Shown here: piece after piece, positions 19 to 19,943 of the stretch
Numbering within the stretch: position 1 is the stretch's first letter
How the letters are laid out: each line of letters opens with the position of its first letter
NCBI RefSeq assembly: GCF_030816475.1
Contig: NZ_JAUSXF010000001.1
Span: 2,728,001 to 2,792,000, forward strand
Length of the DNA: 64,000 bases
Reading direction: 5' to 3'
From: Arthrobacter pascens
GTDB taxonomy: Bacteria; Actinomycetota; Actinomycetes; Actinomycetales; Micrococcaceae
Made by a program: the position numbers and the translations under genes
The notes under the pieces: model-generated
Told to the model about the DNA's origin: nothing
Seen by the model: only the letters and a program-made list of their open reading frames with translations
Database searches by the model: none

Positions 19-2657
<2,639 letters not shown>

Positions 2658-2751
2658 GGAAAATGCTCCTCATGTTGGGTTGGTAGTTGATTGTCTCGGA
2701 CGTTCTAGGGGAATTCTTTACTGAAAGCCTGTCACAGACGGCGGCGGGCCA

Positions 2752-4322: not shown

Positions 4323-5605
4323 TGGGCGTCCTTGGCTGTTTGGAGGATGGCCGGGAAGGCCGCGAGGAACGTGCTGGCCTGGTCCTTGGTCAGGACCAGG
4401 GGCGGAGCGAGCCGGATCGTGCGCGGCCCGGGGCTGTTGACGATGAACCCTGCTTCCAGGCCGGCGGTCACCACGGCAGGAGCGACGTCGGCGTCGAGGT
4501 CGAAGCCGATCAGCAGGCCCTCCCCCCGGACTTCGGTGACGCCTTCAATGCTGGCCAGCCGGGCCCGGAGGTGCTCCCCCACCACGTCAACGTTCTCCAG
4601 CACTCGCTGGCTTTCGATGGCGTGCAGCGTGGCCAGTGCGGCTGCCGTCGCAACCGGATTGCCGCCGAAGGTGGTGCCGTGCTGGCCTGCAGACAACAAC
4701 GACGACGTTCCGTCACCGAAGGTGATCAGGGCCCCGATGGGGAAGCCGCCGCCCAAGCCCTTGGCGAGCGTGACGGCATCGGGCATAATCCCGGAGTCCT
4801 CGCTGGCAAGCCACTTGCCGGTCCGGCCAATTCCGGTCTGCACCTCGTCCAGGATCAGCAACGCCCCTACCCTGGCAGTCAGCTCCCGTGCTGCCCGGAG
4901 ATATCCGGGCGGCAAGGGGCGCACGCCCGCCTCGCCCTGGATCGGCTCCAGGAAGACCGCAGCCACGCTTTCGTCCACAGCATCCTTGAGTGCCTCCACG
5001 TCGCCGAACGGGATGTGGACCACGCCGCCGGGCAGCGGCTCGAACGGTGCCCGGTAGGCTTCCTTGGCGGTGAGGGCAAGGGCGCCCATGGTCCGGCCGT
5101 GGAAGGCTCCCTCAAGCGCAATGATCTTGGTCCGCTTCTTGTCGCTGCCGCCCGTATTGCGCCGGGCCAGCTTAAAGGCGGCTTCATTGGCTTCGGTGCC
5201 GGAATTGGTGAAGAACACCTTCGAGCCCGCGGGGGCGTCCGTCAGGTCCAGCAGCTTCTCTGCCAGCGCGATCTGGGTGGGGCTGGTGAAGAAGTTGGAG
5301 ACATGTCCCAGTGTGGCCAGCTGGCTGGAGATCACGGAGGTGACAAAAGGGTGGGCATGACCCAGGGCGTTGACGGCGATCCCGCCGAGCAGGTCCAGGT
5401 ACTCCTTGCCGTCGGCGTCCCAGACCAGGCAGCCGGCACCGCGCACCAGCACACGCTGCGGTGTGCCAAAGACGCCCATCAGGGATGTGGAATAGCGGGC
5501 CAGCCAGTCGGCACCGCTGGTGTGGCCTTTGCCGTCGACCAGGTCTCCGACTGGTGTTTTCTCAAGTGTTCCGGCCGCGTGGGTTCCGGTGCGTGTCTGG
5601 TTCAT
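4319..5605 (-). CDS. argD: Acetylornithine aminotransferase
   Basis: PLP-dependent class III aminotransferase that makes N-acetylornithine from N-acetylglutamate semialdehyde; the same family can serve as succinyl-diaminopimelate transaminase. The 428-residue chain shows [14 protein letters not shown], the cofactor-binding [14 protein letters not shown], and the Schiff-base lysine in [14 protein letters not shown]. The start codon overlaps the argB stop (ATGA) and its own stop overlaps argF (GTGA). A 30-residue N-terminal extension before the conserved core ([13 protein letters not shown]) is longer than in enterobacterial enzymes. Confidence 0.97.
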
Positions 5606-6591
5606 GGGGTTACTCCTGCTGCTTCGTTGAGTACGTCTCCGTCGGGGACCACCTGCGTGCCGATGCCCGCGGTGGTGAATGTTTCCAGGAGCATGGAGTG
5701 CGGGAGCCGGCCGTCCACGATGTGCGCCTGTTCAACGCCGCCGTCAATGGCCTTCAGGCACGCCTGCATCTTGGGGATCATGCCCGATTCCAGTGATGGC
5801 AGCAGCCGGCGCAGTTCGGAGGCTGTGAGCGAGGAAATGAGCGAGGACCGGTCCGGCCAGTTGGCGTACAGGCCTTCAACATCTGTCAGGATGACCAGCT
5901 TGGACGCGTTCAGTGCCTCGGCAAGGGCAGCGGCTGCCGTGTCCGCGTTGACGTTGAGTACCTGCCCGGTGGTCTGGACGCGCTGGTCCGGCTGGAAACC
6001 CTGGCCGGCCCCGCCGTCGTCCTCAATTTCCGGTGCGACGGTGGATATCACGGGGATGCGTCCGGCCGCCAGGATGTCCAGGATGCCTTCGGGGTTGACG
6101 CCCACCACTTCGCCCACGAGGCCCAGGTCAACTTCCTCGCCGTCGATGACGGTGCCGGTCCGGACGGCGCGCAGGAGCCCGCCGTCTTCACCGGACATTC
6201 CGACGGCGTAGGGTCCATGGGAGTTGATCAGGCCGACGAGTTCGCGTCCCACCTGGCCGGTGAGGACCATCCGGACCACGTCCATGGCCTCCGGCGTGGT
6301 GACCCTGAGCCCGCCTTTGAATTCGGATTCGATGCCCAGGCGGCCGAGCATGGCGTTGATCTGGGGACCGCCGCCATGGACCACCACGGGATGGATCCCG
6401 ACATGGTGGAGGAAGACCACATCCTCGGCGAAAGCACGGCGCAGCTCGTCGTTGACCATGGCATTGCCGCCGTACTTGATCACCATGGTGGTTCCGGCGA
6501 AGCGCTGGATCCACGGCAGGGCCTCGATCAGGGTGCCGGCCTTGCTCCGGGCGTCAGTCATGGACGTGGTCTCACGGGTCTGGGTGTTCAT
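5602..6591 (-). CDS. argB: Acetylglutamate kinase
   Basis: Phosphorylates N-acetylglutamate and is usually the arginine feedback point. Amino acid kinase fold: the phosphate-binding [10 protein letters not shown] near the N terminus and [15 protein letters not shown]. The N-terminal segment before [12 protein letters not shown] suits the arginine-sensitive hexameric class, which is an inference from the family. Start choice is uncertain: an ATG four codons upstream (6603) has its Shine-Dalgarno-like GGAG touching it, the one used here (MNTQTRE) is spaced better, and a third ATG (MTDARS) also exists. Stop overlaps the argD start. Confidence 0.95.
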
Positions 6592-6624
6592 GGGGTGCAG
6601 CATCTCCAGGTTTGGCTGGTTGAT

Positions 6625-7791
6625 CTAGCTTGAGTAGGCGCTGTTTTCGTGCACGTAATCATGCGTGAGGTCGTTGGTCCAGATGGTGGCTTCCGCGTCG
6701 CCGGCCTGAAGGTCTATCTCCACGTGCACTTCCCGCGGTTCCAGGTCCACGAGGTTGCGGTCATCGCCGATGCTGCCGTTGCGGCAGATCTGGATCCCGT
6801 TCATGGCCACATTGAGCTTGTCCGGCTCAAAAACGGCGTCAGTGGTTCCCACAGCAGACAGGACCCGGCCCCAGTTGGGATCCTTGCCGAAGATGGCCGC
6901 CTTGAAGAGGTTGGACCTCGCGACGGAACGGCTGACAATTTCGGCGTCCCGTTCGCTGGCCGCGTTGAACGTACGGATGGCGATGTCGTGGCTGGCACCT
7001 TCGGCGTCGCCAATCAGTTTGCGCGCCAGTTCGGCACACACCTGGGTGAGGCCGGCACCGAACGCCTCGGCAGAGGGCACGGCGCCGGATGCACCGGAAG
7101 CCAGCAGCACCACAGTGTCGTTGGTTGACATGCAGCCATCAGAGTCGGCACGGTCAAAGGTGACCCGCGTGGCGTCCCGAAGGGCGAGGTCAAGCAGTTC
7201 GGGAGCGACCTCAGCGTCAGTGGTGAGCACAACCAGCATGGTGGCCAGGCCGGGGGCCAGCATGCCTGCACCCTTCGCGATGCCGCCGATGGTGAACTCC
7301 TGGCCGTCGCCGTTCATGCCGATGAACAGAGCTGCCTTTGGTACGGAGTCAGTGGTCATGATGGCAAGGGCCGCCTCGGGGCCGCCATCCGTGCTGAGCG
7401 CCGTCGAGGCTGCCTCGATGCCTGGCAGGATCTTGTCCATCGGCAGCTGCTCGCCGATGAGGCCAGTGGAGCATACCAAAACGTCGGTCGCCGAAATCTC
7501 CAGCACCTTGGCCACTTTTTCGGCGGTGCTGTGGGTGTTCTGGAATCCTTCGGGCCCGGTGCAGGCATTCGCACCGCCGGAATTGAGGACAACGGCGTCC
7601 ACCCGGCCGTCGGAGACAACCTGGCGTGACCAGTGGACGGGAGCGGCTGCCACCCGGTTGCTGGTGAAGACGGCGGCGGCTGCCTTGGAGGGTCCGTCGT
7701 TGACTACCAGGGCGAGGTCGGGTTTGCCGGATGCCTTCAGTCCGGCAGTGATGCCGGCAGCCCGGAATCCGAGGGGGGCTGTAACGGTCAC
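6625..7791 (-). CDS. argJ: Bifunctional ornithine acetyltransferase / N-acetylglutamate synthase
   Basis: Recycles the acetyl group from N-acetylornithine to glutamate and, in bifunctional forms, uses acetyl-CoA. The Ntn-type precursor cleaves itself before a threonine; the site is visible in [15 protein letters not shown] (A|T). The 388-residue length is normal. The GTG start overlaps the argC stop (GTGA). The frame is open much further upstream but that part lies inside argC. No separate N-acetylglutamate synthase gene is in the window, consistent with the cyclic acetyl pathway. Confidence 0.97.
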
Positions 7792-8819
7792 GGGGCAACT
7801 CCCTGCAGGTTGAGGCCGGCGGTTTCTGCCAGCCCGAGCGCGATGTTCATGGATTGCACAGCGCCGCCTGCAGTCCCCTTGGTGAGGTTGTCCAGGACAC
7901 ACGTGACGATGACGCGGCCAGTGTGTTCGTCCAATGCCACCTGCATGGCGGCGTGGTTGGATCCAACAACGGACTTGGTGGTGGGCCACTGCCCTTCCGG
8001 CAGGAGGTGCACAAACGGCTCGTCGTCGTACGCGTCGGCCCAGGCCTGGCGGACGTCGGCTGCTGTGGTTCCCGCCTTCACCCTGGCTGTTGCCGTGGTC
8101 AGGATGCCGCGGCTCATGGGTGCCAGCGTAGGGGTAAAGGAAACAGTCACACGTCCACCGGCGGCATTGGACAGGCCCTGCTCGATTTCCGGAGTGTGGC
8201 GGTGTCCGCCTCCCACCCCGTAGGGGCTCATCGAGCCCATCACTTCCGATCCAATCAGGTTGACCTTCGCCGCTTTGCCCGCACCGGACGTACCGGAGGC
8301 GGACACAATCACCACATCTTCGGGCTGAAGCAGTTGGGCTGTGAAGCCAGGCGTCAAAGCCAGCAGGGCCGACGTCGGGTAGCAGCCGGGAACGGCGATG
8401 CGGGTGGCGCCCTTCAGCGCCTCGCGCTGGCCGGGAAGTTCCGGCAGGCCGTAGGGCCAGGTTCCGGCGTGGGCCGAGCCGTAGAATTTTTCCCAGGCGG
8501 CAGGATCCTCCAGCCGGTGGTCCGCCCCGGCGTCGATTACGACCGTGCCTTCGGGGAGCTGCGCGGCAATCTCGGCGGAGGCGCCGTGCGGCAGGGCGAG
8601 GAACACAACATCGTGGCCCGCCAGGTTCTCCACGGTGGTGTCTTCCAGGAGCCGGTCCGCCAGCCCCAGCAGATGGGGCTGCAGTTCGCCGAGGCGGGAT
8701 CCTGCATTGCTGTGCGCGGTGATGGCGCCGATGGTCACGTCCGGGTGTCCCGCCAGGAGGCGCAGCACCTCTCCCCCGGCGTAGCCACTCGCCCCGGAAA
8801 CGGCAACAGAAATAGTCAT
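7788..8819 (-). CDS. argC: N-acetyl-gamma-glutamyl-phosphate reductase
   Basis: NADPH-dependent reduction of N-acetylglutamyl phosphate. The N-terminal Rossmann start is [19 protein letters not shown] and the catalytic cysteine is in [14 protein letters not shown] use the ATG giving MTISVAVSG (343 aa). A longer version adds 12 residues ([12 protein letters not shown]), but the probable -10 hexamer TATGAT lies inside that extension, exactly seven bases before the chosen ATG, so the mRNA should begin at this codon. First gene of the operon. Confidence 0.96.
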
Positions 8820-8826
8820 GCCTTGA

Positions 8827-8877
8827 ATCATACAGCAAACAGCAAAAGTATTCATGCTGTCCGATAATTATGCATGA
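8827..8877 (-). promoter_or_regulatory. argC operon promoter with probable ArgR operators
   Basis: On the minus strand a -10 TATGAT (8827-8832) is preceded, with a 17-base spacer, by ATGAAT (8850-8855), a weak -35. Two AT-rich GCAT-type elements, GCATGAATAC (8849-8858) and TGCATAATTAT (about 8864-8874), cover and flank the -35 in an otherwise GC-rich region, as ARG boxes do in other bacteria. The start codon is seven bases past the -10, so transcription should start at or one base before the ATG. The promoter is well formed; the ArgR assignment is inference. Confidence 0.55.
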
Positions 8878-9001
8878 CCTTGGAGTTGCTCGGATAAAGA
8901 ACGGCGCGACCCCTGCCGTATGCTGGACAAAGGGTGATCCTGACCGTGCAGTCCGAGTGTCGGCTGCAGCGTTGCCCGTAACTGTTACGAGGCCCCGTTA
9001 C

Positions 9002-10096
9002 ATGACCGCCACCCTCCTTACAACTGAACGCCCTAAATCGCGTATCCGCCAGCCCAACGCCGTCGTCCTGAGCTATTCGGAACTGCTGAAGTCCGTCAAG
9101 GCCGCGGGTTTGCTGGAACGCCGGGTTGGTTTCTACGTCACTGTCTTTGCCAGCCTGGTGCTCCTGATGGCGGCCACCTGGTTCGGTTTCGCCCTGATCG
9201 GTGACAGTTGGTTCCAGCTCCTGATCGCTGCGGCCCTGGGAGTCCTTTGCACCCAGCTGAGCTTCCTGGCCCATGAGGCCGGGCACCGCCAGATCTTCGC
9301 TTCACGCCGCGCCAACGACTGGTCCGCCAGGCTGCTCGCCACCTCTGTGGCCGGGATGAGTTACTCGTGGTGGGAGCAGAAGCACGGAGCCCATCACAAC
9401 CACCCGAACGTGATCTCCAAGGATCCGGACATCATGGACAGCCCCATCGCCTTCCACACCGAAACCGCGGCCGCCCGTCAAGGATGGCTCTCGTCCGTCC
9501 TGACGCGAAAGCAGGGCTGGTTCTTCTTCCCGCTCCTCCTGGGCGTGGGCCTGGGCCTCCAGATCGATTCCGTCAAGTTCGTCTTTCGCCGCGCCAAGGT
9601 CACGCACCGCTGGGTTGAGCTGCCCATCCTCGTCGTCCGGCTCAGCATCCTGCCCATCCTCGCCTTTTCATTCCTGCCGCTGGGGATGGCCTTTGCCTTC
9701 ATCGCCGTGCAACTCGCCGTTTTTGGTTTCTACATGGGTGCCTCGTTTGCACCCAACCACAAGGGCATGCCTGTCCTTCCCGCAGATAGCCGGGTGGATT
9801 TCTTCAGCCGTCAGGTGCTGACGTCCCGGAACATCTCGGGCGGCTTTTTTATGGATATCCTCTTGGGCGGCCTGAACCGCCAGGCCGAGCACCACCTGTT
9901 CCCGGACATGGCCCGGCCGCAGCTGGACAAGGCTGCAAAGATTGTCCGTGAGTATTGCCACAAGCACCAGGTCCCCTACACGGAAACGACGCTGCTGCAG
10001 TCCTACGGCATCATCGTCCGCTACCTCAATGACGTGGGGCTTGCCGCCGGACGCCACTTCGAGTGCCCGATGGCCACGGTTACCCGCCGCTACTGA
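9002..10096 (+). CDS. Membrane fatty acid desaturase (DesA3-like)
   Basis: Membrane di-iron desaturase expected to insert a double bond into acyl chains. The three histidine boxes are HEAGH (residues 91-95), HGAHH (128-132) and QAEHH (294-298). Hydrophobic pairs lie around residues 40-85 and 200-245. I start at MTATLLTTERPKS; an earlier in-frame ATG would add 44 residues that look like non-coding sequence. It is divergent from the argC operon and followed by a quinone oxidoreductase. It resembles actinobacterial acyl-CoA desaturases; regiospecificity cannot be read. A link to cold or membrane adaptation is only inference. Confidence 0.9.
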   Translation: MTATLLTTERPKSRIRQPNAVVLSYSELLKSVKAAGLLERRVGFYVTVFASLVLLMAATWFGFALIGDSWFQLLIAAALGVLCTQLSFLAHEAGHRQIFASRRANDWSARLLATSVAGMSYSWWEQKHGAHHNHPNVISKDPDIMDSPIAFHTETAAARQGWLSSVLTRKQGWFFFPLLLGVGLGLQIDSVKFVFRRAKVTHRWVELPILVVRLSILPILAFSFLPLGMAFAFIAVQLAVFGFYMGASFAPNHKGMPVLPADSRVDFFSRQVLTSRNISGGFFMDILLGGLNRQAEHHLFPDMARPQLDKAAKIVREYCHKHQVPYTETTLLQSYGIIVRYLNDVGLAAGRHFECPMATVTRRY

Positions 10097-10180: not shown

Positions 10181-11146
10181 ATGACGCATGCAATCGTCGC
10201 CCGGCAGCAGGGCGGCCCCGAAGTACTGGAGTACGCAGAGGTTGAGCCGCCCGTTCCCGGGCCCGGCCAGGTGCTCATCAAGGTGGCCGCCGCCGGCGTC
10301 AACTTCATTGATACCTACCAGCGCGGCGGCGTGTACAAGGTTGAATTCCCGTTCACACCCGGGTCTGAAGCCGCAGGAACGGTTGAGAAGCTTGGTGCCG
10401 GGGTCGAGGATTTCACGGTGGGCAGCCGCGTGGCCACCGCCGAAGGCTCAAAGTGCTATGCGGGTTATACCGTCGTGGACGCCGCAAAGGCCCTCCCAGT
10501 GCCGGAGGGCGTGGACGACCTGACGGCGGCGGCGCTCCCGCTGCAGGGCATGACCGCGCACTATCTGATCAATTCCTCGTTCCGGGTGGAGCCAGGCCAC
10601 ACCGCCCTCGTCCACGCAGGTGCCGGCGGCGTAGGACTGCTCCTGATCCAGCTCCTCAAGGCTCGCGGCGCACGCGTCATCACCACGGTCTCCTCCGGTA
10701 CCAAGGAGGAGCTGGCCCGGGCAGCCGGGGCCGACCATGTGCTGCGCTATGCCGGCTTCCCGCATCATGTCCGTGACCTGACTGACGGAAAGGGTGTGGA
10801 CGTGGTGTACGACGGCGTCGGCAAGGACACCTTTGACGGGTCCCTTTCCTGCCTGCGCATCAGGGGTTTCCTGGTCCTTTTCGGTGCGGCTTCCGGGCCC
10901 GCCCCGGCTTTCGACCCGCAGCGGCTGAATGCTGGAGGATCGTTGACCCTGACCCGTCCTACACTGGGGCACTTCCTCCTGAACCAGCAGGAACGCCGGT
11001 GGCGTTCCACAGAAATTTTCGGCGCGGTTGCTGACGGAAGCCTCAAAGTCAGGGTGGGGTCCACGTATCCCCTTGCAGACGCCCGGCAGGCCCACGAGGA
11101 CCTTGAAGGTCGGCGCACCACGGGCAAGGTACTGCTGATCCCCTAG
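10181..11146 (+). CDS. NADPH:quinone oxidoreductase, zinc-free MDR family
   Basis: Medium-chain dehydrogenase/reductase of the QOR type, reducing quinones or enones with NADPH in the cytoplasm. 321 residues, starting THAIVARQQGGPEVLEY. The nucleotide-binding motif HAGAGGVGLLLIQL lies in the second half, and there are no structural zinc cysteines. GGAGGAGAG upstream of the ATG is a strong ribosome binding site. The gene lies 84 bp after the desaturase and 138 bp before the NRPS gene; a functional link to either is not evident. Confidence 0.92.
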   Translation: MTHAIVARQQGGPEVLEYAEVEPPVPGPGQVLIKVAAAGVNFIDTYQRGGVYKVEFPFTPGSEAAGTVEKLGAGVEDFTVGSRVATAEGSKCYAGYTVVDAAKALPVPEGVDDLTAAALPLQGMTAHYLINSSFRVEPGHTALVHAGAGGVGLLLIQLLKARGARVITTVSSGTKEELARAAGADHVLRYAGFPHHVRDLTDGKGVDVVYDGVGKDTFDGSLSCLRIRGFLVLFGAASGPAPAFDPQRLNAGGSLTLTRPTLGHFLLNQQERRWRSTEIFGAVADGSLKVRVGSTYPLADARQAHEDLEGRRTTGKVLLIP

Positions 11147-11284
11147 GTGCGACTTTGTCTGCAGGGGAACAACTCCCATTCCGCGCCCCAGAGGTTACGG
11201 CCGGGAAAAACGCAGGCGAACCCGCGGTGGACGGCCGGCAAACCGCGACACTTTCCGTTCATCTTGTCCAGAGAGACTGCAGGG

Positions 11285-14200
11285 GTGACCGAGCAACAAC
11301 TCAGCGGCCTTGCACCAGACTGCCATGCCGAATATCAGCCCCAGCTGCCCCGGGCCGCCGCATCTCCGCCTGTGAGGACATTGGTGGAGATCCTCGAGGC
11401 AACTGCCGACCTCCATCCGGACGCATCAGCCCTCGACGACGGACGTCAGTCGCTAAGTTACGCCCAGCTTCTGACAGCCGTCAGGTCCGCAGGCAGGCAG
11501 TTGCATCTTGCCGGGCTTGGAACAGGTGACAAGATCGGCGTGCGGATCCCTTCCGGCACCAACCAGCTGTACATCTCCATTCTGGCGGTCCTCCACATTG
11601 GGGCTGCTTACGTCCCGGTGGATGCCGACGACCCCGACGAACGGGCACGCCTGGTCTTCGCTGAGGCAGGAGTGTCGGCCATCCTGAGCGCGACGGGCCT
11701 CACCCTGACGGGCGTGCGGCCCGCGCCCTTCCCGGCGCCGCGGGCCGCCACTCCTGACGATGATGCCTGGGTAATTTTCACCTCGGGTTCCACCGGCACC
11801 CCCAAGGGCGTCGCAGTCACGCACCGGTCTTCGGCTGCCTTTGTCGATGCAGAAGCACGCCTCTTCTTGGCGGCCGAGCCCATCGGCCCCCAGGACAGGG
11901 TCCTGGCCGGACTCTCCGTGGCGTTTGATGCCTCCTGCGAGGAGATGTGGCTGGCCTGGCGGCACGGGGCCTGCCTCGTGCCCGCGCCCCGCACCCTCGT
12001 GCGTACTGGAATGGACCTCGGCCCTTGGCTCATCAGTCACGGGATCACTGTGGTCTCCACTGTTCCCACGCTGGCCGCCTTGTGGCCGGCAGAGGCACTG
12101 GAGAACGTCCGGCTGCTGATCTTCGGGGGCGAGGCCTGCCCTCCTGAGCTTGCGGAGCGCCTCGCTGTGGAGGGCCGCGAAGTCTGGAACACCTATGGTC
12201 CTACCGAGGCGACGGTAGTGGCCTGCGCTGCGCCGCTGGGCGGCCCCGGGCCGGTCCGGATCGGCCTGCCGCTTGACGGCTGGGACCTGGCTGTGGTCGA
12301 TTCCCTCGGCGTTCCGGTCGTTGAAGGCGGCGTGGGTGAACTCATCATCGGTGGCGTGGGGCTGGCCCGCTACCTCGACCCCGCGAAAGATGCTGAGAAG
12401 TACGCTCCGATGCCCGCACTGGGGTGGGAGCGCGCCTACCGGTCAGGGGACCTGGTTCGGTTCGAAGCCGCCGGGCTCGTTTTTGTGGGCCGTGCCGACG
12501 AACAGGTGAAGCTGGGCGGCCGCCGGATCGAACTCGGGGAAATCGACGCCGCGCTGCAGGCCCTCCCCGGCGTTGCGGGGGCTGCTGCGGCGGTCCGGAC
12601 CACTGCCGCCGGCAACCAGATCCTGGTGGGATACCTCGCCCTTGCCGCGGATGCTGATCCGGACCTCGCCGCCGCCCGTCAACTTCTGGCAGCGAACGTT
12701 CCAGCCGCGCTCATCCCGCTGCTTACAGTCGTCGATTCGCTGCCGACGAAAACGAGCGGCAAGGTGGACCGGCATGCCCTTCCCTGGCCGCTGACCGGAG
12801 CCGGCCTGGCAGACGCCGACAACGCCCCGCTGAATCTGCCGGATGACGCCCGCTGGATCGTCGAACAATGGGCCGCCGTGCTCGGAAGTCCTGCCGCCAG
12901 CCTGAATGCTGACTTCTTCGCCCACGGCGGCGGATCGCTTGCCGCGGCGCAACTCGTTTCCGCCCTCCGGCTGCGCTACCCCACCATCACCGTCGCTGAC
13001 ATCTATGCCACACCACGGATGGGAGCCTTGATCGACGCGGCCCGCCAGTCGCTGCCCGACGGCGTTGCGGCCGGGCCGGCAAGGGAACGCACCGTCCGGC
13101 CCACGGCACGGAAGTCCCAGGTTTTCCAGACCTTCATGGGCGTCCCGTTGCACATCCTGGTGGGCATGCGCTGGCTGACCTACCTCATGGCGGGGAACAA
13201 CCTCCTCGCAGGGCTGGCCGGGTTCACGGCGGCTCCAACAGTTTCCTGGTGGTGGGTCGCGGCATCGTGGCTCGTGTTCGTCAGCCCGCCAGGCAGAATG
13301 GGACTGTCCATAGCGGCGGCCCGGATCCTGCTGCGAAAAGTAGTCCCGGGAACTTACCCACGGTCGGGCAAGGTGCACCTTCGCCTGTGGCTTGCCGAGC
13401 AGATCCAGGATCTGTCAGGCGCGGTGAGCCTCGCCAGCGCCCCCTGGGTGCCCCACTATGCCCGTGCCCTGGGAGCGAAGATCGGCACCAACGTGCAGCT
13501 GCATTCCCTGCCGCCCGTGACAGGTCTGATCTCCCTGGGCAACGACGCGAACATCGAGCCGGAGGTGGACCTTTCGGGGTGGTGGATCGACGGCGACAGT
13601 GTCCACATCGGGGCAATCCACGTTGGCGCAGGTGCGACAGTGGGCGCGCGCAGCACGCTGATGCCCGGTGCCAGCATCGGAGCCGGCGGCCAGGTGGAAC
13701 CGGGCTCGGCTGTACTTGGCAAGGTGAAAGCCGGCCAGGTGGTGGCAGGCTCTCCCGCACAGCGGCGGGGCAAGGCCCGGCAGGACTGGCCGGAGGCGCC
13801 CCGCACCGGAGCGCTGGCCGGCAGGCTCTGGTTCACGGCGTTCGCGGCGGCGTCGGCCGTACTGGCCGTGATTCCCTACTTCTCTGCGGCAGCCGCCTGC
13901 CTGGTGGTGTTCCTCTTCATCCGGGGCGGCAGCTCGCTTTCAGCTGCCTGGCCGCAATTGCTGGCGTCCCTCCCGTTGGCTGCCCTGGCCTGGTTCGTGG
14001 CCAACCTGCTGCTGGTCCTGGGAACCACGCGCCTGCTCGGACTGGGCCTGGAGGAGGGCTACTACAGGGTCCGGAGCCGGATCGGCTGGCAGGTCTGGGC
14101 CACGGAGCGGGTTCTGGACCTGGCCAGGGACCTGCTCTTCCCGATCTATGCGAGCCTGTTCACACCCGTCTGGCTGCGCCTGCTGGGAGCAAAGATCGGC

Positions 14201-15283
14201 AAGAATGTGGAAGCCTCCACAGTGCTGCTCCTGCCGAAGATGACCACCGTTGGTGAAGGGGCATTTCTTGCCGACGACACCATGGTGGCATCCTACGAAC
14301 TCGGCGGCGGGTGGATGAGGATCGCCCCGGCCAAGATCGGGAAACGTTCATTCCTTGGGAACTCAGGCATGACAGGGGCAGGCAGGAACGTCCCGAAGAA
14401 CTCCCTGGTCGCAGTCCTGTCCGCAACGCCGTCGAAGGCCAAGTCCGGAACGTCCTGGCTCGGCAGCCCGCCTGTCCGGCTGCGGCGCACCGCAATTGCC
14501 TCGGACAACTCCCTGACATTCAAGCCCCCGCTCCGTCTTAAGGTCGCCCGGGCGCTCTGGGAAGCCTGCCGATTCGTGCCGGTGGTGCTGACGGTGGGTC
14601 TTGCCTTCGGCGTGCTGCTGGCCTTCGACCGGCTGGCCGCTACCTTCGGCTACGTCCTTGCCGCTGCGCTAAGCGGAATAGTGATTCTGGTGGCAGGAGC
14701 CGTGGCTGCCGCCAGCGCCGTCATTGCCAAATGGCTGCTGGTGGGCAGGATCAGGGAGGGCGAACACCCGCTCTGGAGCTCCTTTATCTGGCGGAACGAA
14801 GTAGTGGATACCTTCATCGAGATGGTCAGCGCGCCGTGGTTTGCCCGTTCTGCCACCGGAACGCCGGCACTGGTGTGGTGGCTCCGCGGTCTGGGGGCCA
14901 AAATCGGCTCCGGAACCTGGTGCGAAAGCTACTGGCTGCCGGAAGCCGACCTGGTGACTCTTGGCGCTAATTCCACCGTCAACCGCGGGTGCGTGGTCCA
15001 GACGCACCTGTTCCACGACCGCATCATGAGTATTGGCACTGTTACGCTCGAAGACGGGGCGACCATGGGGCCGCACGGCGTCATCCTTCCGCAGGCACGG
15101 ATCGGCCGTGGCGGAACCGTAGGGCCGGCTTCGCTGGTGATGCGTGGGGAAACTGTTCCGGCAGGAACGTACTGGATGGGCAACCCGGTGAGTCCGTGGG
15201 CCGGTCCGGGCAGTCCCGCGCCCCGCCTGAAGCAGGCAGGCTCCGCAACAGAGACAAGACCGCTTGTCCATAACCTTTTGTGA
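11285..15283 (+). CDS. Pls/PosA-type nonribosomal peptide synthetase (A-T-membrane-hexapeptide domains)
   Basis: Single-module synthetase of 1332 residues. Adenylation domain: A3 FTSGSTGTPKG at 165-175, NTYGPTEATV near 302, YRSGDLVRF, GRADEQVKLGGRRIELGEI, and A10 PTKTSGKVDR near 489. Thiolation domain: HGGGSLAAAQL with the carrier serine at 551. No condensation or thioesterase domain follows. Instead, hydrophobic segments (about 620-690, 840-920, 1090-1155) alternate with three left-handed beta-helix-like domains, each opening with LGAKIG (about 730-835, 965-1055, 1200-1310). This is the layout and size of epsilon-poly-L-lysine synthetase. My manual reading of the specificity pocket is DAESIGTVVK, close to known lysine codes. 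I start at the GTG of VTEQQLSGLAP; upstream in-frame sequence lacks homology. Product inferred, not shown. Confidence 0.88.
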   Translation: MTEQQLSGLAPDCHAEYQPQLPRAAASPPVRTLVEILEATADLHPDASALDDGRQSLSYAQLLTAVRSAGRQLHLAGLGTGDKIGVRIPSGTNQLYISILAVLHIGAAYVPVDADDPDERARLVFAEAGVSAILSATGLTLTGVRPAPFPAPRAATPDDDAWVIFTSGSTGTPKGVAVTHRSSAAFVDAEARLFLAAEPIGPQDRVLAGLSVAFDASCEEMWLAWRHGACLVPAPRTLVRTGMDLGPWLISHGITVVSTVPTLAALWPAEALENVRLLIFGGEACPPELAERLAVEGREVWNTYGPTEATVVACAAPLGGPGPVRIGLPLDGWDLAVVDSLGVPVVEGGVGELIIGGVGLARYLDPAKDAEKYAPMPALGWERAYRSGDLVRFEAAGLVFVGRADEQVKLGGRRIELGEIDAALQALPGVAGAAAAVRTTAAGNQILVGYLALAADADPDLAAARQLLAANVPAALIPLLTVVDSLPTKTSGKVDRHALPWPLTGAGLADADNAPLNLPDDARWIVEQWAAVLGSPAASLNADFFAHGGGSLAAAQLVSALRLRYPTITVADIYATPRMGALIDAARQSLPDGVAAGPARERTVRPTARKSQVFQTFMGVPLHILVGMRWLTYLMAGNNLLAGLAGFTAAPTVSWWWVAASWLVFVSPPGRMGLSIAAARILLRKVVPGTYPRSGKVHLRLWLAEQIQDLSGAVSLASAPWVPHYARALGAKIGTNVQLHSLPPVTGLISLGNDANIEPEVDLSGWWIDGDSVHIGAIHVGAGATVGARSTLMPGASIGAGGQVEPGSAVLGKVKAGQVVAGSPAQRRGKARQDWPEAPRTGALAGRLWFTAFAAASAVLAVIPYFSAAAACLVVFLFIRGGSSLSAAWPQLLASLPLAALAWFVANLLLVLGTTRLLGLGLEEGYYRVRSRIGWQVWATERVLDLARDLLFPIYASLFTPVWLRLLGAKIGKNVEASTVLLLPKMTTVGEGAFLADDTMVASYELGGGWMRIAPAKIGKRSFLGNSGMTGAGRNVPKNSLVAVLSATPSKAKSGTSWLGSPPVRLRRTAIASDNSLTFKPPLRLKVARALWEACRFVPVVLTVGLAFGVLLAFDRLAATFGYVLAAALSGIVILVAGAVAAASAVIAKWLLVGRIREGEHPLWSSFIWRNEVVDTFIEMVSAPWFARSATGTPALVWWLRGLGAKIGSGTWCESYWLPEADLVTLGANSTVNRGCVVQTHLFHDRIMSIGTVTLEDGATMGPHGVILPQARIGRGGTVGPASLVMRGETVPAGTYWMGNPVSPWAGPGSPAPRLKQAGSATETRPLVHNLL

Positions 15284-15299
15284 TTGAGGCCCGCCCAGC

Positions 15300-16679
15300 A
15301 TGAGCTCACCAGATTCGACCAGCTCCGGAACAGCATTGGGGACGACTGAGGCCCGCCCCGTAACCGATCCATATGTCGCCGGCCATGGTACTGACGCCTA
15401 CAGCGTATCGCGCTATGAGCTGGACCTCGATTACCGGCTGTCCAGCAACAGGCTCTCCGGTCACGCTGTCCTTCATGCCGCGGCCACCCGCACTGTCTCG
15501 GCCATAGTGCTTGACTTGGCGGGGCTCCGGGCCGTCAAGGTCTCCCTCAACGGTCGGCGCGTCCGGCGTTTCACGCACCGCGCGGAACAGCTGGTGGTCC
15601 ACCTCGAGACGGGGCTTGTCCGGGGCGACGCCATCAGCCTGGACATCCGGTACGAGGGCAACCCGTCACCCCGCCGTGGCCTTTGGGGTGAAGTGGGCTG
15701 GGAAGAGCTGACCGACGGCGTCCTCGTGGCAGGACAGCCGAATGGAGCGCCGTCGTGGTTCCCCTGCAACGACCACCCACGTGATAAGGCCAGTTACCGG
15801 ATCTCCGTGACCACTGACGCAACCTACCGGGCCGTCTGCAACGGGAAACTGGTGGGCCACACCAGCAGGTCCAGCCGGGAAACCTGGACGTACGAGCAGG
15901 ACGAGCCGATGGCCACGTACCTGGCGACGGTTCAGATCGGCCGTTACGACGCCTTGGTCCTTGACCCCGGAACAGCGCCCGGGGGCGTCCTGCAAAGGGT
16001 GGCTGTTCCGGCAGCCCTGGCCGGCGCGGCCCGTGAGGGGCTTCGCCTGCAGCCGGAAATGATGAGGACGTTCATCAGCTCTTTCGGGCCCTATCCGTTC
16101 GCTGAATACACCGTGGTTGTGGCTGACGATGTCCTGGAAATCCCGCTGGAAGCCCAGACCCTGTCGATTCTTGGCCGCAACCACCTGAGCCTGGACTGGG
16201 AGGCACAGCGGCTGATCGCCCATGAACTGTCGCACCAGTGGTTTGGCAATTCCCTGACGGTGAGTGCTTGGAGCGACATCTGGCTCCATGAGGGCTTCGC
16301 CTGCTACGCCGAGTGGATCTGGTCCGAGGCCGCCGGCGTGATGCCCGCACAGGACCGGGCAGCGTCGGCCTGGCGGGGGCTCTCCGCCGACCCGCAGGAC
16401 CTGGTTGTCGCAGATCCAGGCCCGGCGCTGATGTTCGATGACCGGGTCTACAAACGGGGAGCCCTGGCCCTCCACGCCCTCCGGGTCCGCTGCGGCGATC
16501 TGGCTTTCTTTGCCCTCCTGCAGGAATGGACAAGGAGCCGCCGGCACGGCTCCGTATCCACCGCCGAGTTCATTCTCCTCGCTGACAGCACCGCCGGCAT
16601 CGATTCGGAAGCGCTGCTCCACCCGTGGCTGTTTGAGGAAGCACTTCCTCCGCTGCCTGCAAGGGGGCGGCCGGCCTAG
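15300..16679 (+). CDS. M1-family zinc aminopeptidase, catalytic domains only
   Basis: Gluzincin metallopeptidase: HELSH at 308-312 and the third zinc ligand Glu331 in HEGFACYAEW, exactly the HExxH-x18-E spacing of family M1. At 459 residues it has the N-terminal saddle and catalytic domain but lacks the long C-terminal helical domain of PepN. The GAMEN exopeptidase motif is replaced by PLEAQTL. No signal peptide is obvious. It begins 16 bp after the NRPS stop, so it is almost surely co-transcribed. Poly-lysine producers carry an M1-type poly-lysine-degrading enzyme, and I infer a similar trimming or self-protection role. Confidence 0.9.
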   Translation: MSSPDSTSSGTALGTTEARPVTDPYVAGHGTDAYSVSRYELDLDYRLSSNRLSGHAVLHAAATRTVSAIVLDLAGLRAVKVSLNGRRVRRFTHRAEQLVVHLETGLVRGDAISLDIRYEGNPSPRRGLWGEVGWEELTDGVLVAGQPNGAPSWFPCNDHPRDKASYRISVTTDATYRAVCNGKLVGHTSRSSRETWTYEQDEPMATYLATVQIGRYDALVLDPGTAPGGVLQRVAVPAALAGAAREGLRLQPEMMRTFISSFGPYPFAEYTVVVADDVLEIPLEAQTLSILGRNHLSLDWEAQRLIAHELSHQWFGNSLTVSAWSDIWLHEGFACYAEWIWSEAAGVMPAQDRAASAWRGLSADPQDLVVADPGPALMFDDRVYKRGALALHALRVRCGDLAFFALLQEWTRSRRHGSVSTAEFILLADSTAGIDSEALLHPWLFEEALPPLPARGRPA

Positions 16680-16700
16680 GCGGTCGGCCTGGCCGGCCGC
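16667..16700. terminator. Hairpin terminator between the converging M1 peptidase and PPTase genes
   Basis: Perfect GC-rich inverted repeat: GCGGCCGGCC pairs with GGCCGGCCGC, extended by an inner AGGC/GCCT stem around a GGTCG loop. It overlaps the peptidase stop codon (TAG at 16677) and lies between two converging genes. No T-run follows, as is common in high-GC actinobacteria. It probably works in both directions. Confidence 0.6.
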
Positions 16701-16721
16701 AAGTTCATCCCTTCGCCACAA

Positions 16722-17390
16722 TCATCCCAGCGCAACAGCCGCAGCGAAGGCGTCAGGCAGGCCTGTGCGGGTGGCGGCGAGGTCGGCGATTCCAGGCAGG
16801 CTTCCCGCATCAACAGTCCGCGGATCCCTCCGAACCCCCTCGCCCGTCATCTTGAGCCAGGCCTCTTTCCGGACCCACAGACGGGCGCGCTCGCTGAGCA
16901 GCGCAGGACCGGAGAGCGACGCGACGCCGACCCGTTCATCCTGTCCCAGGGCCACGGCGTCGAATCCTTCAAAGCCCAGCCGTCCCGGGTCCTCGGCATC
17001 AACCCCCAGCCGCAGGCCCTTGACCGGCGACGTTAGCCCTGCAAGCAGAATCCAGTCCTGCGTCCGTGCCAGGCTCAGCAGCACCGGCAGCTGTTTGCCC
17101 CTGCGTGCATACCCTGGACGGCCATGGGAGACCGCCGGGCCTGACCCGCAGACCGGGCAGGAGTAGGAGGCTTCCAGCTCATCGGGTGGCACGTCCAGCA
17201 GCGTCGCAGCGAACCGGCGCAGGGCCGTCCTGCCGGCGATGAAGCGAGCCCGTGAATCCGGCACCATGGCCGCCGCACGGCCCGCTTCCGCAGGATCCAG
17301 CAGGAGGCCATGCACGTTGTGCCCGGCGGAACCCGGACGGTCGCCCTCCCTTCCGGTTTGAACGGCCTGAAGAACGAGTCCGGGTTCCAT
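16722..17390 (-). CDS. 4'-phosphopantetheinyl transferase (Sfp/EntD superfamily)
   Basis: Transfers phosphopantetheine from CoA to a carrier-protein serine. The 222-residue protein carries the magnesium-binding GVDAED and the second motif WVRKEAWLKMTGEG, at the expected spacing for Sfp-type enzymes. An unusual CPVCGSG segment (about residue 96) contributes two cysteines. It starts nine bases after the pheT stop and so is read as the third gene of pheS-pheT, while converging with the NRPS-peptidase pair. The natural client is likely the thiolation domain of that synthetase; this is inferred from location. Family assignment is secure from the two motifs. Confidence 0.87.
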   Translation of the reverse strand: MEPGLVLQAVQTGREGDRPGSAGHNVHGLLLDPAEAGRAAAMVPDSRARFIAGRTALRRFAATLLDVPPDELEASYSCPVCGSGPAVSHGRPGYARRGKQLPVLLSLARTQDWILLAGLTSPVKGLRLGVDAEDPGRLGFEGFDAVALGQDERVGVASLSGPALLSERARLWVRKEAWLKMTGEGVRRDPRTVDAGSLPGIADLAATRTGLPDAFAAAVALG

Positions 17391-17399
17391 ACGCAGCGA

Positions 17400-19943
17400 C
17401 TACCGCTGGACGGCGCCGAAACGCTCCGAAGCCACGGCAACTGCGCTTTCACGGGCTGCGGAAGCCTCGTCCGCGGTGAGCGTCCGGTCATTGGCGCGGA
17501 ACCGGAGCCCGAAGGCCAGGGACTTCTTGCCTTCTTCGATCCCCTTGCCCGCATACACATCGAACAGCGCGACATCTTCCAGGAGCTCCCCCGCGCCTTC
17601 GCGGAGCGCCGTCAGGACATCGTCCGCCGGGACGTCCTGCGGCACCACGAGGGCCACGTCCTGGGTCGCCACCGGGAAGGTGGAAATGTGGCGGGCAACA
17701 ATGACGTCGGCGGCCGCTTCGAACAATGCGTCCGCGTCGATCTCCACCGCAACGGAGCGGGGAGGCATGTCGTGCGCGGCAAGGAGCTTCGGATGCAGCT
17801 CCCCTGCGTAGCCCACCACTTCACCGCTGCGCAATGACAGCTGCGCGGTGCGGCCCGGGTGGAAGGCCTGGTGCTTGCCTTGGCTGACCACTGTCTCCAC
17901 GCCCAGGACGTCACCGGCGAGCCGGGCGATGTCCAGCGCATCGGCCCAGTCCCAGGCACGGGGTGTATGGGCAGCGGCTGCCGGCGAATCGTGGCCGGTC
18001 AGTACGGCGGCAAGGTGCAGCGGCTGGTCCGGGACGCCGTCGTACAGTGCATCAAGCACCTCGTCGGAGGGCTTGACGCCAAGCGGCGGAATGGAAGCGG
18101 TTCCCACGGTGCCGCCGGGCAGGAACACCAGCCCGGACTCGAAGAGTGCCAGATCCCGGAAACCTCGGGAGTGGTTGCGCTTGGCCACCTCGATCAGGCC
18201 GGGGAGGATGGAAGTCCGCAGGAAGCCCTGCTCCTCGCTGATGGGGTTGGCGAGCTTCACGGCGGTCCGTTCGGCCCCCGCCTCCGCCACGCCGAACGTG
18301 TCGTTGGAGGCCTTGGATACAAAGGGGTACGCGATGACCTCGGTCAGGCCTGCGTCGGCCAGCGACTGTATCAGCCGGCGCCGCTGCTGCTGCGTACGCG
18401 TCAGGCCGCGCCCCGGAGGCGCAACCGGCAGGGTAGCCGGGATGTGGTCATAGCCCACCAGCCGCGCGATTTCCTCGGACAGGTCCTCTTTGGTCTCAAG
18501 GTCGTTCCGCCAGCTCGGGGCAGTGACTGTCCAGCCGCCGTCGTTCTGCTCCACCACGGCGCCGAGGTCCTCAAGGGAGGTGACGATCTGTTCTTCCGTG
18601 AAGTCAATGCCGATCCGTTGCGCCGCAAATGCAGCCGGCAGGTGGATGGACACGGCATCCGGAGCAGTCCCGACGTCGGTACCGGCCCCGTCCGCGATGC
18701 CCCCGGCGAGTTCCACGAGCAGGTCGGTGACCCGCTGGGCAGCGACGTTTGCCACCTGCCAGTCGACGCCGCGCTCAAAGCGCTTGGAGGCTTCGGACGG
18801 CAGCTTGTGGCGGCGGCGGGAGCGCGCAATGGACACTTCGTCGAAGTGCGCCGCCTCCACCAGGACGTTCGTGGTGGAGTCGGAAACCTCGGTGGCGGCC
18901 CCGCCCATGACCCCGGCGATGCCGATCGCGCCCGATCCGTCAGTGATGAGCAGATCCTCGACGTCGAGCGTGCGCTCTTTGCCGTCCAGGGTGGTGATCT
19001 TCTCCCCCGCTACGGCACGGCGGACCACGATGTCCCCTGAGAGCCTGTCCAGGTCGTAGCAGTGCGTGGGCTGGCCAAGTTCCAGCATGACGTAGTTGGA
19101 GATGTCCACCGGAAGGGAAATGGAGCGAATTCCGGCAAGACGCAGCCGCGAGGCCATCCAGGGAGGCGTCGGCTTGGTGGCGTCAACGCCGCGGATGGTG
19201 CGGGCTACGAAACGGTCGCAACCTGGCTTGCCGTAGATCGGGGCGTCGTCGTTGAGCTTGACGCCGTGCCCGCCGGAAAGCTCGGCCGGCGCGTTAACGC
19301 GGGAAGCGGGATCGGTGAAGGAGGTACCGGTGGCGTGAGCGTACTCGCGTGCCACACCACGGATGGAGAAGGCGTAGCCGCGGTCAGGGGTGACGTTGAT
19401 TTCGGCTGCTTCGTCATAGAGGCCCAGGAGTTCCATGGCGTCGGTGCCGATTTCCGGATCCAGCCCGATGCGGGACAGCACCAGGATGCCGTCGTGGTCC
19501 TCGCCGATGCCCAGTTCGCGGACCGAGGCGATCATGCCAGCGGAGAGGTGGCCGTAGGTCTTTCGGGCGGAGATGTGGAAGTTCCCGGGCAGTACCGCGC
19601 CCGGCAGGGTGACCACCACTTTGTCGCCCTCAACGAAGTTGTGCGCGCCGCAGATGATGCCCTGGACTCCGGACGGATCGATGCCGTCGCCTGTAAGTGT
19701 CTGCTGCTGGCCCTCCGGGACAACCCGGACCTGGCACCAGTTGATGGTCTTGCCGTTGGACTGCGGCTCCTTGACCAGGCTCAGCACCTGACCGACCACG
19801 ACGGGACCCTGCAGCCCATCGGTGGGGCGGTGGACAGCTTCCTCTTCAAAGCCGACCTTGACCAGCTCAGCCATGACCTCTTCGGCCGTTGCTCCGGCCG
19901 GTACCTGCGCGAATTCACGCAGCCAGGAAAGTGGGATACGCAC
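17400..19943 (-). CDS. pheT: Phenylalanyl-tRNA synthetase beta subunit
   Basis: Large subunit of the heterotetrameric enzyme that charges tRNA-Phe. The 847 residues are a normal length: an N-terminal EMAP-type tRNA-binding domain (about 45-160, WCQVRV...GIICGAHNF), the B3/B4 editing domain, B5, and a C-terminal ferredoxin-like anticodon-binding domain (HISTFPVATQDVALVV...). The gene starts two bases after the pheS stop. The PPTase gene follows nine bases later on the same strand. Confidence 0.98.
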   Translation of the reverse strand: MRIPLSWLREFAQVPAGATAEEVMAELVKVGFEEEAVHRPTDGLQGPVVVGQVLSLVKEPQSNGKTINWCQVRVVPEGQQQTLTGDGIDPSGVQGIICGAHNFVEGDKVVVTLPGAVLPGNFHISARKTYGHLSAGMIASVRELGIGEDHDGILVLSRIGLDPEIGTDAMELLGLYDEAAEINVTPDRGYAFSIRGVAREYAHATGTSFTDPASRVNAPAELSGGHGVKLNDDAPIYGKPGCDRFVARTIRGVDATKPTPPWMASRLRLAGIRSISLPVDISNYVMLELGQPTHCYDLDRLSGDIVVRRAVAGEKITTLDGKERTLDVEDLLITDGSGAIGIAGVMGGAATEVSDSTTNVLVEAAHFDEVSIARSRRRHKLPSEASKRFERGVDWQVANVAAQRVTDLLVELAGGIADGAGTDVGTAPDAVSIHLPAAFAAQRIGIDFTEEQIVTSLEDLGAVVEQNDGGWTVTAPSWRNDLETKEDLSEEIARLVGYDHIPATLPVAPPGRGLTRTQQQRRRLIQSLADAGLTEVIAYPFVSKASNDTFGVAEAGAERTAVKLANPISEEQGFLRTSILPGLIEVAKRNHSRGFRDLALFESGLVFLPGGTVGTASIPPLGVKPSDEVLDALYDGVPDQPLHLAAVLTGHDSPAAAAHTPRAWDWADALDIARLAGDVLGVETVVSQGKHQAFHPGRTAQLSLRSGEVVGYAGELHPKLLAAHDMPPRSVAVEIDADALFEAAADVIVARHISTFPVATQDVALVVPQDVPADDVLTALREGAGELLEDVALFDVYAGKGIEEGKKSLAFGLRFRANDRTLTADEASAARESAVAVASERFGAVQR

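What the first reader, a model, noticed from the sequence alone, without database searches (positions are those of the whole stretch)
11285..17390. Candidate poly-amino-acid system: Pls-type synthetase, M1 peptidase and phosphopantetheinyl transferase
The 1332-residue synthetase has one A and one T domain, then three membrane-flanked hexapeptide-like domains and no condensation or thioesterase domain, the architecture and size of epsilon-poly-L-lysine synthetase. A zinc M1 peptidase follows at 16 bp, and such peptidases degrade poly-lysine in known producers. A PPTase that could activate the T domain sits convergent. Together they encode synthesis, activation and possible degradation of a homopolymer. 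I know of poly-lysine made by Streptomyces relatives; production by Arthrobacter-type soil bacteria is not something I can confirm.
Basis: partly seen in the sequence, partly recalled or inferred. Interest (0 to 1): 0.82.

Follow-up and report, generated by a model that had tools for sequence, protein, structure and literature searches.

The report
Polylysine-making gene cassette in Arthrobacter-type bacterium
A soil-bacterium genome carries a three-gene cassette that very likely makes, activates and trims epsilon-poly-lysine, a natural antimicrobial polymer also used as a food preservative; the synthetase and peptidase are of a known kind, but the way the cassette comes and goes as one block together with its own activating enzyme is a useful new detail.

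Summary
Window 11285-15283 encodes a Pls/PosA-family synthetase (TIGR02353, 694 bits against a cut-off of 423). Its adenylation domain is 66% identical to that of epsilon-poly-L-lysine synthase (PDB 7WEW), with the same ten selectivity residues (DAESIGTVVK). An M1 peptidase follows 16 bp later, as in 80 of 80 named relatives (the best 80 of at least 592); this is the published pls-pldII arrangement. Pls homologues in Arthrobacter are already in print (Jiang 2021). So it is a new member of a known kind, very probably lysine-specific. No product was shown here.

What I add concerns the phosphopantetheinyl transferase. Among 150 genomes of the genus its homologue is in 122 of 123 with a synthetase and 0 of 27 without; those 27 show no other Sfp-type transferase that I could find. 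Between a quinone-oxidoreductase gene and pheT the cassette is missing cleanly: 77-167 bp remain in 21 of 25 readable sites, against 6253 bp here. Trees need about 11-14 changes of state. The transferase gene starts 9 bp after pheT on the same strand and may ride on pheST. It is probably the synthetase's dedicated activator, and related species with and without the cassette can show what the polymer is for.

The parts
11285..15283 (+). pls: Pls/PosA-family synthetase, 1332 aa (A - T - membrane/hexapeptide terminal domain); frame open from 11147
   Evidence: TIGR02353 694.3 bits vs cut-off 423.1; relatives in 80 named genomes
11336..12799 (+). adenylation domain (residues 18-505) with selectivity residues D215 A216 E219 S258 I279 G281 T303 V311 V312 K493 = DAESIGTVVK
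   Evidence: 321 of 486 aligned residues identical to 7WEW, same ten residues; same code in 80 of 80 named loci
12851..13036 (+). thiolation (carrier) domain, residues 523-584; phosphopantetheine serine S551 at 12935-12937
   Evidence: PF00550 35.2 bits; Ser in 81 of 81
13124..15190 (+). terminal polymerisation domain, residues 614-1302: helical pairs alternating with three hexapeptide (left-handed beta-helix) units
   Evidence: TIGR02353; AlphaFold2 model and Foldseek hits to hexapeptide acyltransferases
14999..15022 (+). third hexapeptide unit: invariant QTHLFHDR (Q1239-R1246); H1241 and D1245 also kept in three distant family members; candidate catalytic His/Asp
   Evidence: H1241, H1244, D1245, R1246 in 81 of 81; H and D kept in the L156, L158, L159 copies; role inferred
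15300..16679 (+). M1 zinc peptidase, 459 aa, in the PldII position; H308-E309-H312 and E331; the usual GXMEN stretch reads IPLEA
   Evidence: PF01433/PF17900; zinc residues 81 of 81; downstream of pls in 80 of 80 loci
15286..15289 (+). GAGG, probable ribosome-binding site of the peptidase gene
   Evidence: sequence; inference
16722..17390 (-). Sfp-type 4'-phosphopantetheinyl transferase, 222 aa, convergent to pls-M1, 9 bp after the pheT stop on the same strand
   Evidence: PF01648 29.6 bits vs 25; GVDAE and WVRKEAWLK; co-occurrence
11147..17399 (.). the cassette: 6253 bp between the qor stop and the pheT stop, reduced to 77-167 bp in 21 of 25 readable genomes without pls
10181..11146 (+). flank: NAD(P)H quinone oxidoreductase (qor), not part of the system
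17400..19943 (-). flank: pheT; the transferase gene follows it directly and may be read from the pheST operon
   Evidence: gene name by inference from the sequence and the neighbouring pheS-like frame; operon reading is inference

Best explanation
The three genes form one system that makes epsilon-poly-L-lysine. The transferase (16722-17390) loads phosphopantetheine onto Ser551 of the synthetase. The adenylation domain activates L-lysine and passes it to the carrier arm. The membrane-embedded terminal domain, three packed hexapeptide (left-handed beta-helix) units, joins the lysines through their epsilon-amino groups, probably with H1241/D1245 of the third unit as the catalytic pair, and releases or exports the chain. 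The M1 peptidase cuts the polymer and so protects the cell or recycles it. Shown here: family, lysine-type pocket, intact catalytic residues, the fold by prediction, the joint presence and absence of the three genes. Inferred: the product, the peptidase's substrate, the catalytic pair, export, and expression of the transferase from pheST.
For: TIGR02353 over cut-off. Adenylation domain 66% identical to 7WEW with an identical ten-residue code; the same code in 80 of 80 named loci. PosA paper (PMC10522769, passages): Ala at position 2 goes with lysine, Met with ornithine, Phe with diaminopropionate/diaminobutyrate. Same-strand M1 peptidase downstream in 80 of 80 loci, within 183 nt in 76, also in annotated Streptomyces and Kitasatospora plasmids. 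Published pls-pldII operon, 4-bp overlap in S. albulus (PMC4361855 passages), and proven product for C. variabile Pls (PMC8117764). Transferase homologue in 122 of 123 genomes with pls and 0 of 27 without; the exception, G091, has a divergent transferase-like frame (34% identical). In this genome PF01648 finds only this gene and an AcpS-sized one.
Against: No polymer has been seen. Even a proven pls can be silent: C. variabile made none, and its gene made none in C. glutamicum, until expressed in Streptomyces. On a Rhodococcus opacus plasmid a 63% identical synthetase has neither peptidase nor transferase within 5 kb on either side, so the peptidase is not obligatory everywhere. No sigma-70-like promoter was found, which says little in a GC-rich actinobacterium. 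Full-length S. albulus Pls and PldII were not held, so those alignments were not made. The peptidase lacks the standard GXMEN motif and has no hydrophobic N-terminal stretch, while PldII is reported on the outside of the membrane. A review says inactivating the degrading enzymes did not change production or chain length. The genome has one more carrier-domain protein beside the ACP (L090), so Pls is not provably the transferase's only client.
Confidence: 0.83

Rival explanations
1. It is a Pls-family enzyme but makes another cationic polymer (ornithine, diaminobutyrate, diaminopropionate, beta-lysine).
For: The family has several products (PMC10522769), and related genomes carry copies with a different code, DFECLSVVTK (L158, L159).
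Against: The ten selectivity residues equal those of the lysine enzyme 7WEW. The genes directly flanking it are qor, the peptidase, the transferase and pheT, none of them a diamino-acid biosynthesis gene, unlike the split system in L156 that sits next to SbnB.
Confidence: 0.08
2. The transferase is a general one for the cell and its position beside pls is incidental; its joint absence reflects loss of a neighbouring stretch.
For: It sits right behind pheT, and a deletion of the stretch would remove it with pls. One other carrier-domain protein exists in this genome (L090).
Against: In 5 genomes with pls the transferase is same-strand beside the peptidase, and in 11 it is farther away (6 on the same contig over 2 kb off, 5 on another contig), yet it is still present with pls. 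G018 and G073 lack pls at the pheT site, and G094 has no close pls anywhere, but all three keep a 50% identical pls elsewhere and keep the transferase. ORFs of L090's size class (about 850-980 aa) with a carrier match occur in genomes without the transferase, for example G001, G007, G011; I did not test that they are true L090 relatives.
Confidence: 0.13
3. The peptidase is a housekeeping aminopeptidase unrelated to the polymer.
For: M1 enzymes are common; more distant M1 genes (34-43% identity in the listed rows) occur in the genus. The best PDB matches are annotated zinc metalloproteases and general aminopeptidases. The R. opacus plasmid synthetase has none beside it.
Against: A close homologue is in 123 of 123 genomes with pls; of 27 without, one (G142) has only a 42% partial match. 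It follows pls in 80 of 80 named loci. In S. albulus the adjacent PldII degrades the polymer (PMC9223678 passages).
Confidence: 0.13

Closest known systems
Streptomyces albulus Pls-PldII (epsilon-poly-L-lysine synthetase with its degrading peptidase)
   Same: Domain order and size as described in print, peptidase directly downstream on the same strand; adenylation domain 66% identical to 7WEW with the same code (that 7WEW is the S. albulus protein is recalled).
   Different: Gap of 16 bp instead of a 4-bp overlap; a transferase gene beside the pair, which I did not see near the Streptomyces and Kitasatospora plasmid copies. Full-length alignment not made.
Corynebacterium variabile Pls and the coryneform Pls homologues of Jiang et al. 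2021 (PMC8117764)
   Same: Same family, pls-peptidase operon, Arthrobacter named among the carriers.
   Different: That study used cheese and skin isolates and, in the parts I read (1 and 2 of 4), does not mention a linked transferase or cassette loss.
PosA, delta-poly-L-ornithine synthetase of Acinetobacter baumannii (PMC10522769)
   Same: Family and predicted fold: three five-turn beta-helices on six bent helices.
   Different: Code DMEHNGTVSK against DAESIGTVVK here; posA is a single-gene operon.
[quoted passage not shown]
   Same: Same cluster type by genome mining.
   Different: Other genera; no linked transferase in the passages read.

Membership tests
Pls/PosA family synthetases (TIGR02353) | Terminal domain over the curated cut-off, last in the protein | tested here: met
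   694.3 vs 423.1 bits, residues 614-1302, profile 2-695 of 695; in the genome search 1 of 14 control genomes was over the cut-off
Pls/PosA family synthetases (TIGR02353) | One A and one T domain, no condensation or thioesterase domain | tested here: met
   Ser551 in 81 of 81
Pls/PosA family synthetases (TIGR02353) | Six transmembrane helices in three pairs around C1-C3 | tested here: inconclusive
   Hydropathy finds two pairs; the model shows three helical groups; no topology program was run
Pls/PosA family synthetases (TIGR02353) | C1-C3 related to hexapeptide acyltransferases | tested here: met
   AlphaFold2 pLDDT 87.8; Foldseek top hits maltose, galactoside and serine acetyltransferases, E from 7.1e-5, partial matches with target-normalised TM mostly 0.2-0.5 and often large rmsd
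epsilon-poly-L-lysine synthetase (Pls) | Lysine selectivity code | tested here: met
   DAESIGTVVK in window, 7WEW and 80 of 80 loci; the ten positions were mapped by recalled core motifs
epsilon-poly-L-lysine synthetase (Pls) | Makes epsilon-poly-L-lysine | not testable with these tools
   needs expression and mass spectrometry
PldII-type peptidase | M1 zinc site, gene directly behind pls | tested here: met
   HEXXH and Glu 81 of 81; 80 of 80 named loci
PldII-type peptidase | Sequence alignment to S. albulus PldII and activity on the polymer | not tested
   PldII sequence was not held; activity needs the bench
Sfp-type phosphopantetheinyl transferase | PF01648 and the GVDxE and WxxKEAxxK motifs (motifs recalled) | tested here: met
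   29.6 vs 25 bits; both motifs in the window protein; in 30 named-locus hits, some aligned only in part, GVDxE-like in 18 and WxxKEAxxK-like in 28

The most novel reading that the evidence does not exclude
In Arthrobacter-type bacteria epsilon-poly-lysine synthesis is a self-sufficient cassette: synthetase, polymer-cutting peptidase and a dedicated activating transferase, swapped in and out as one 6.2-kb block at a fixed site by recombination in flanking core genes. The transferase is wired to the pheST operon, so the synthetase can always be activated and control rests on pls itself. A trait kept in about 82% of the species sampled and repeatedly lost is then a conditional fitness trait, not a rare antibiotic.
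Probability: 0.43. Interest if true: 0.52.

Novelty: new member of a known kind. Interest (0 to 1): 0.42.

Why it matters
Jiang et al. call the regulation and natural role of this polymer 'less well understood'. The genus offers closely related species that differ in having the cassette (rpoB fragments 99.0% identical for G099/G135 and 98.9% for G126/G122, pheT 94%; in G135 and G122 the cassette sits at another site than pheT), and a transferase whose presence tracks the synthetase. Both make role and activation directly testable. The enzyme is also one more candidate for making a food-grade preservative in a non-filamentous host.

Tried and rejected
Longer start at 11147: the frame is open, but it begins right at the qor stop, and relatives align from residues 1-31 of the 11285 start onwards, so 11285 is kept. 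Hydropathy scan for six helices: only two pairs at 1.5. Sigma-70 promoter scan: none; three terminator-like sites, fewer than the shuffled mean of 5.2. Idea that L090 (AMP-binding, carrier, acyltransferase) is the transferase's true client: not favoured, since ORFs of its size class with a carrier match also occur in genomes without the transferase, but not excluded. Idea that pls absence is one clade: rejected. Presence of any pls changes 14 times on the pheT tree and 14 times on the rpoB tree, against a shuffled mean of 19.3 and minimum of 12, with 12-13 as lower bounds after collapsing weak branches. Because seven of the tips with pls (G009, G016, G021, G049, G122, G130, G135) carry it away from pheT, I recounted: presence at the pheT site changes 14 (rpoB) and 13 (pheT) times, and without those seven tips 12 and 11 times. 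So absence is partly clustered but not one event; the pheT tree is weaker evidence because pheT flanks the cassette. Paper searches: (one search gave nothing of use); nothing that I saw links a transferase gene to pls. Two papers opened gave no bearing on the point beyond general remarks (PMC12025171, PMC11078813; passages).
Full report
WHAT IS THERE. The synthetase frame runs 11147-15283; the likely start is GTG 11285, giving 1332 residues. NCBIfam TIGR02353 'Pls/PosA family non-ribosomal peptide synthetase' matches residues 614-1302 with 694.3 bits (cut-off 423.1). Pfam adds one AMP-binding and one PP-binding domain and, at E up to 0.001, no condensation or thioesterase domain. The M1 peptidase starts 16 bp after the stop, behind a GAGG. 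The transferase lies convergent, 42 bp from the peptidase stop and 9 bp from the pheT stop.

SUBSTRATE. The best solved relative is 7WEW, the adenylation domain of epsilon-poly-L-lysine synthase (E 6.2e-197); that it is the S. albulus protein is recalled, since the passage I read names only the enzyme (PMC10522769). Identity is 321 of 486 aligned residues, and the ten selectivity positions are the same, DAESIGTVVK; 80 of 80 named relatives share them. The positions were mapped by core motifs that I recalled. In PosA the code is DMEHNGTVSK, and the authors tie the second position to chain length: Ala for lysine, Met for ornithine, Phe for the shorter diamino acids (PMC10522769 passages). I therefore expect lysine.

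TERMINAL DOMAIN. An AlphaFold2 model from 53 of the 81 sequences held has mean pLDDT 87.8 and pTM 0.89. Foldseek finds hexapeptide acyltransferases, lowest E 7.1e-5; the matches cover part of the model (query-normalised TM 0.08-0.16, target-normalised 0.12-0.51, rmsd 3-20 in the rows shown). This agrees with the published model of PosA (PMC10522769 section 13). Among invariant residues the stretch QTHLFHDR in the third unit stands out. H1241 and D1245 are also kept in three distant copies of 22-29% identity (L156, L158, L159), where H1244 is not, and model residues 644-646 (H1244 to R1246) have pLDDT below 50. By analogy with hexapeptide acetyltransferases (recalled) H1241 may be the general base. 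This is inference.

PEPTIDASE. Zinc ligands H308, H312, E331 and the catalytic E309 are invariant in 81 of 81. The usual GXMEN stretch (recalled) reads IPLEA, with the Glu invariant. The best PDB matches are 6a8z and 6iff, annotated zinc metalloproteases. There is no hydrophobic N-terminal stretch.

NEIGHBOURHOOD IN NAMED GENOMES. In 80 loci from genome contigs (the best 80 of at least 592 relatives) the peptidase follows the synthetase on the same strand in 80 of 80, within 183 nt of the aligned synthetase end in 76 and 635-2206 nt away in 4. Three plasmid copies outside this set were opened: peptidase present behind pls in Streptomyces sp. NBC_01454 and Kitasatospora sp. NBC_00039 (43% and 48% identity), absent within 5 kb in Rhodococcus opacus B4; no transferase homologue in any of the three stretches. 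A transferase homologue appears in 30 of the 80 loci, in 25 of them within 1.6 kb after the peptidase (24 convergent, 1 same strand) and elsewhere in 5; 50 have none within the DNA held, some because the contig ends. By the record titles the 30 are Arthrobacter and its relatives plus Compostimonas (L035) and Agreia (L047); none is a Nocardia or Rhodococcus locus. Where pheT and the transferase are both held (17 loci) they are on the same strand in 17, and 70 bp or less apart in 13.

PRESENCE AND ABSENCE IN THE GENUS. The same 150 genomes, drawn evenly from a larger group, were searched four ways. TIGR02353 over cut-off: 123 of 150 (at E up to 0.001 all 150 ring, and 13 of 14 controls, so only the cut-off is informative). 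Synthetase protein at E up to 1e-150: 123 of 150, of which 120 have a copy of at least 73% identity and three (G018, G073, G094) only one of about 50%; some of the 120 are split or frame-broken (for example G053, G102, G131). Transferase at E up to 1e-8: 122 of 150, that is 122 of 123 with the synthetase and 0 of 27 without. Peptidase at E up to 1e-40: 124, that is 123 of 123 and 1 of 27, the one (G142) by a 42% partial match. The lists of genomes without a match are cut; the unnamed ones were identified by elimination. PF01648 was sought in all 27 genomes without pls: 25 have one match, taken as AcpS by score and profile range without reading each; G099 has two (the second frame, L171, ends in an AcpS-like sequence, by eye); G118 (63% complete) none. 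G091, the one synthetase genome without a close transferase, has a frame with a PF01648 match, 34% identical to the window's transferase, near a 3632-residue frame with several carrier domains. The transferase lies within 2 kb of the best peptidase hit in 111 of 122: 106 convergent, 5 same strand; 6 are farther on the same contig, 5 on another contig.

EMPTY SITES. In 25 of 27 genomes without pls the pheT region could be read (for the other two the contig ends just behind pheT). qor and pheT are 77-167 bp apart in 21, and 864-1646 bp apart in 4 (G112, G001, G029, G006) that hold other frames, transposase-like by eye in G001. In the window the distance is 6253 bp. In G018 (L151) and G073 (L169) the local pls is gone while peptidase and transferase remain, and a distant pls copy lies elsewhere.

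HOW OFTEN. On a 61-tip pheT tree presence of pls changes 14 times. On a 60-tip tree of an unlinked rpoB fragment it also changes 14 times; shuffled labels give a mean of 19.3 and a minimum of 12; lower bounds with weak branches collapsed are 12-13. Seven tips carry pls away from pheT; scoring presence at the pheT site gives 14 (rpoB) and 13 (pheT), and dropping the seven gives 12 and 11. The tips were chosen by me: all 27 genomes without pls (25 with an rpoB match) and 33-34 of those with it, plus the window's own. The pattern is partly clustered yet needs many events. Loss, gain and exchange through flanking recombination cannot be told apart here.

OWN GENOME. One TIGR02353 protein over cut-off, two PF01648 genes (a 118-residue AcpS-sized frame and this one), and three PP-binding matches: an 87-residue frame (ACP by size), the synthetase and an AMP-binding/carrier/acyltransferase protein. 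ORFs of the latter's size class with a carrier match also occur in genomes without the transferase.

WHAT IS KNOWN. Jiang et al. 2021 (PMC8117764; parts 1 and 2 of 4 read) proved the product for the C. variabile enzyme, described the pls-peptidase operon, and list Arthrobacter among genera with homologues. S. albulus PldII is reported as the main degrading enzyme, adjacent to and coupled with pls (PMC9223678 passages; PMC4361855 passages). A review says that inactivating the degrading enzymes did not change production or chain length (PMC8506220 passages), while repression of pldII is reported to harm the cells. The cluster type is reported from genome mining in Leifsonia, Agrococcus and Microbacterium (PMC10628120 and PMC12067966 passages). 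I found no paper linking a transferase gene to pls in the searches; the library is partial.

VERDICT. A well-supported new member of a known kind. The added value is the transferase as the third member of the cassette and the related species with and without it.

Noticed in passing
L156 (G088:C11:1-12000), 312-9324; similar frame in L157; frames of about 1050-1190 residues also in G046, G061, G116, G132, G140: A split Pls-like system: a 1042-residue protein with three carrier-domain matches followed by the TIGR02353 terminal domain (653 bits) but no A domain, beside a separate A-T protein (874 residues), an SbnB-type 2,3-diaminopropionate enzyme, a frame with a weak dioxygenase match and a LuxE-like ligase. 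It may make a diaminopropionate-containing polymer by an unusual layout; worth its own study.
   Followed up: partly
L158 (G106), L159 (G139); at least 25 of 150 genomes show a second TIGR02353 match over the cut-off in the listed part: Second Pls-family copies (about 1440-1510 residues in these two) with code DFECLSVVTK and 29% identity to the window enzyme, suggesting a shorter diamino acid; product not predicted firmly.
   Followed up: partly
L152-L154 (G009, G021, G122); also G130, G135: In genomes with a pls about 74-75% identical, pls, peptidase and transferase lie on one strand at another chromosomal site, as if the cassette moved whole.
   Followed up: partly
L151 (G018), L169 (G073): Peptidase and transferase kept at the pheT site after the local pls is gone; the peptidase might then protect against polymer from neighbours or from the distant pls copy.
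   Followed up: partly
L165 (Rhodococcus opacus B4 plasmid pROB01): A Pls-family gene 63% identical to the window's without peptidase or transferase within 5 kb.
   Followed up: partly
plasmid hits H8-H12: Pls-family genes about 60% identical on Mycobacterium avium/intracellulare plasmids; not looked at further.
   Followed up: no
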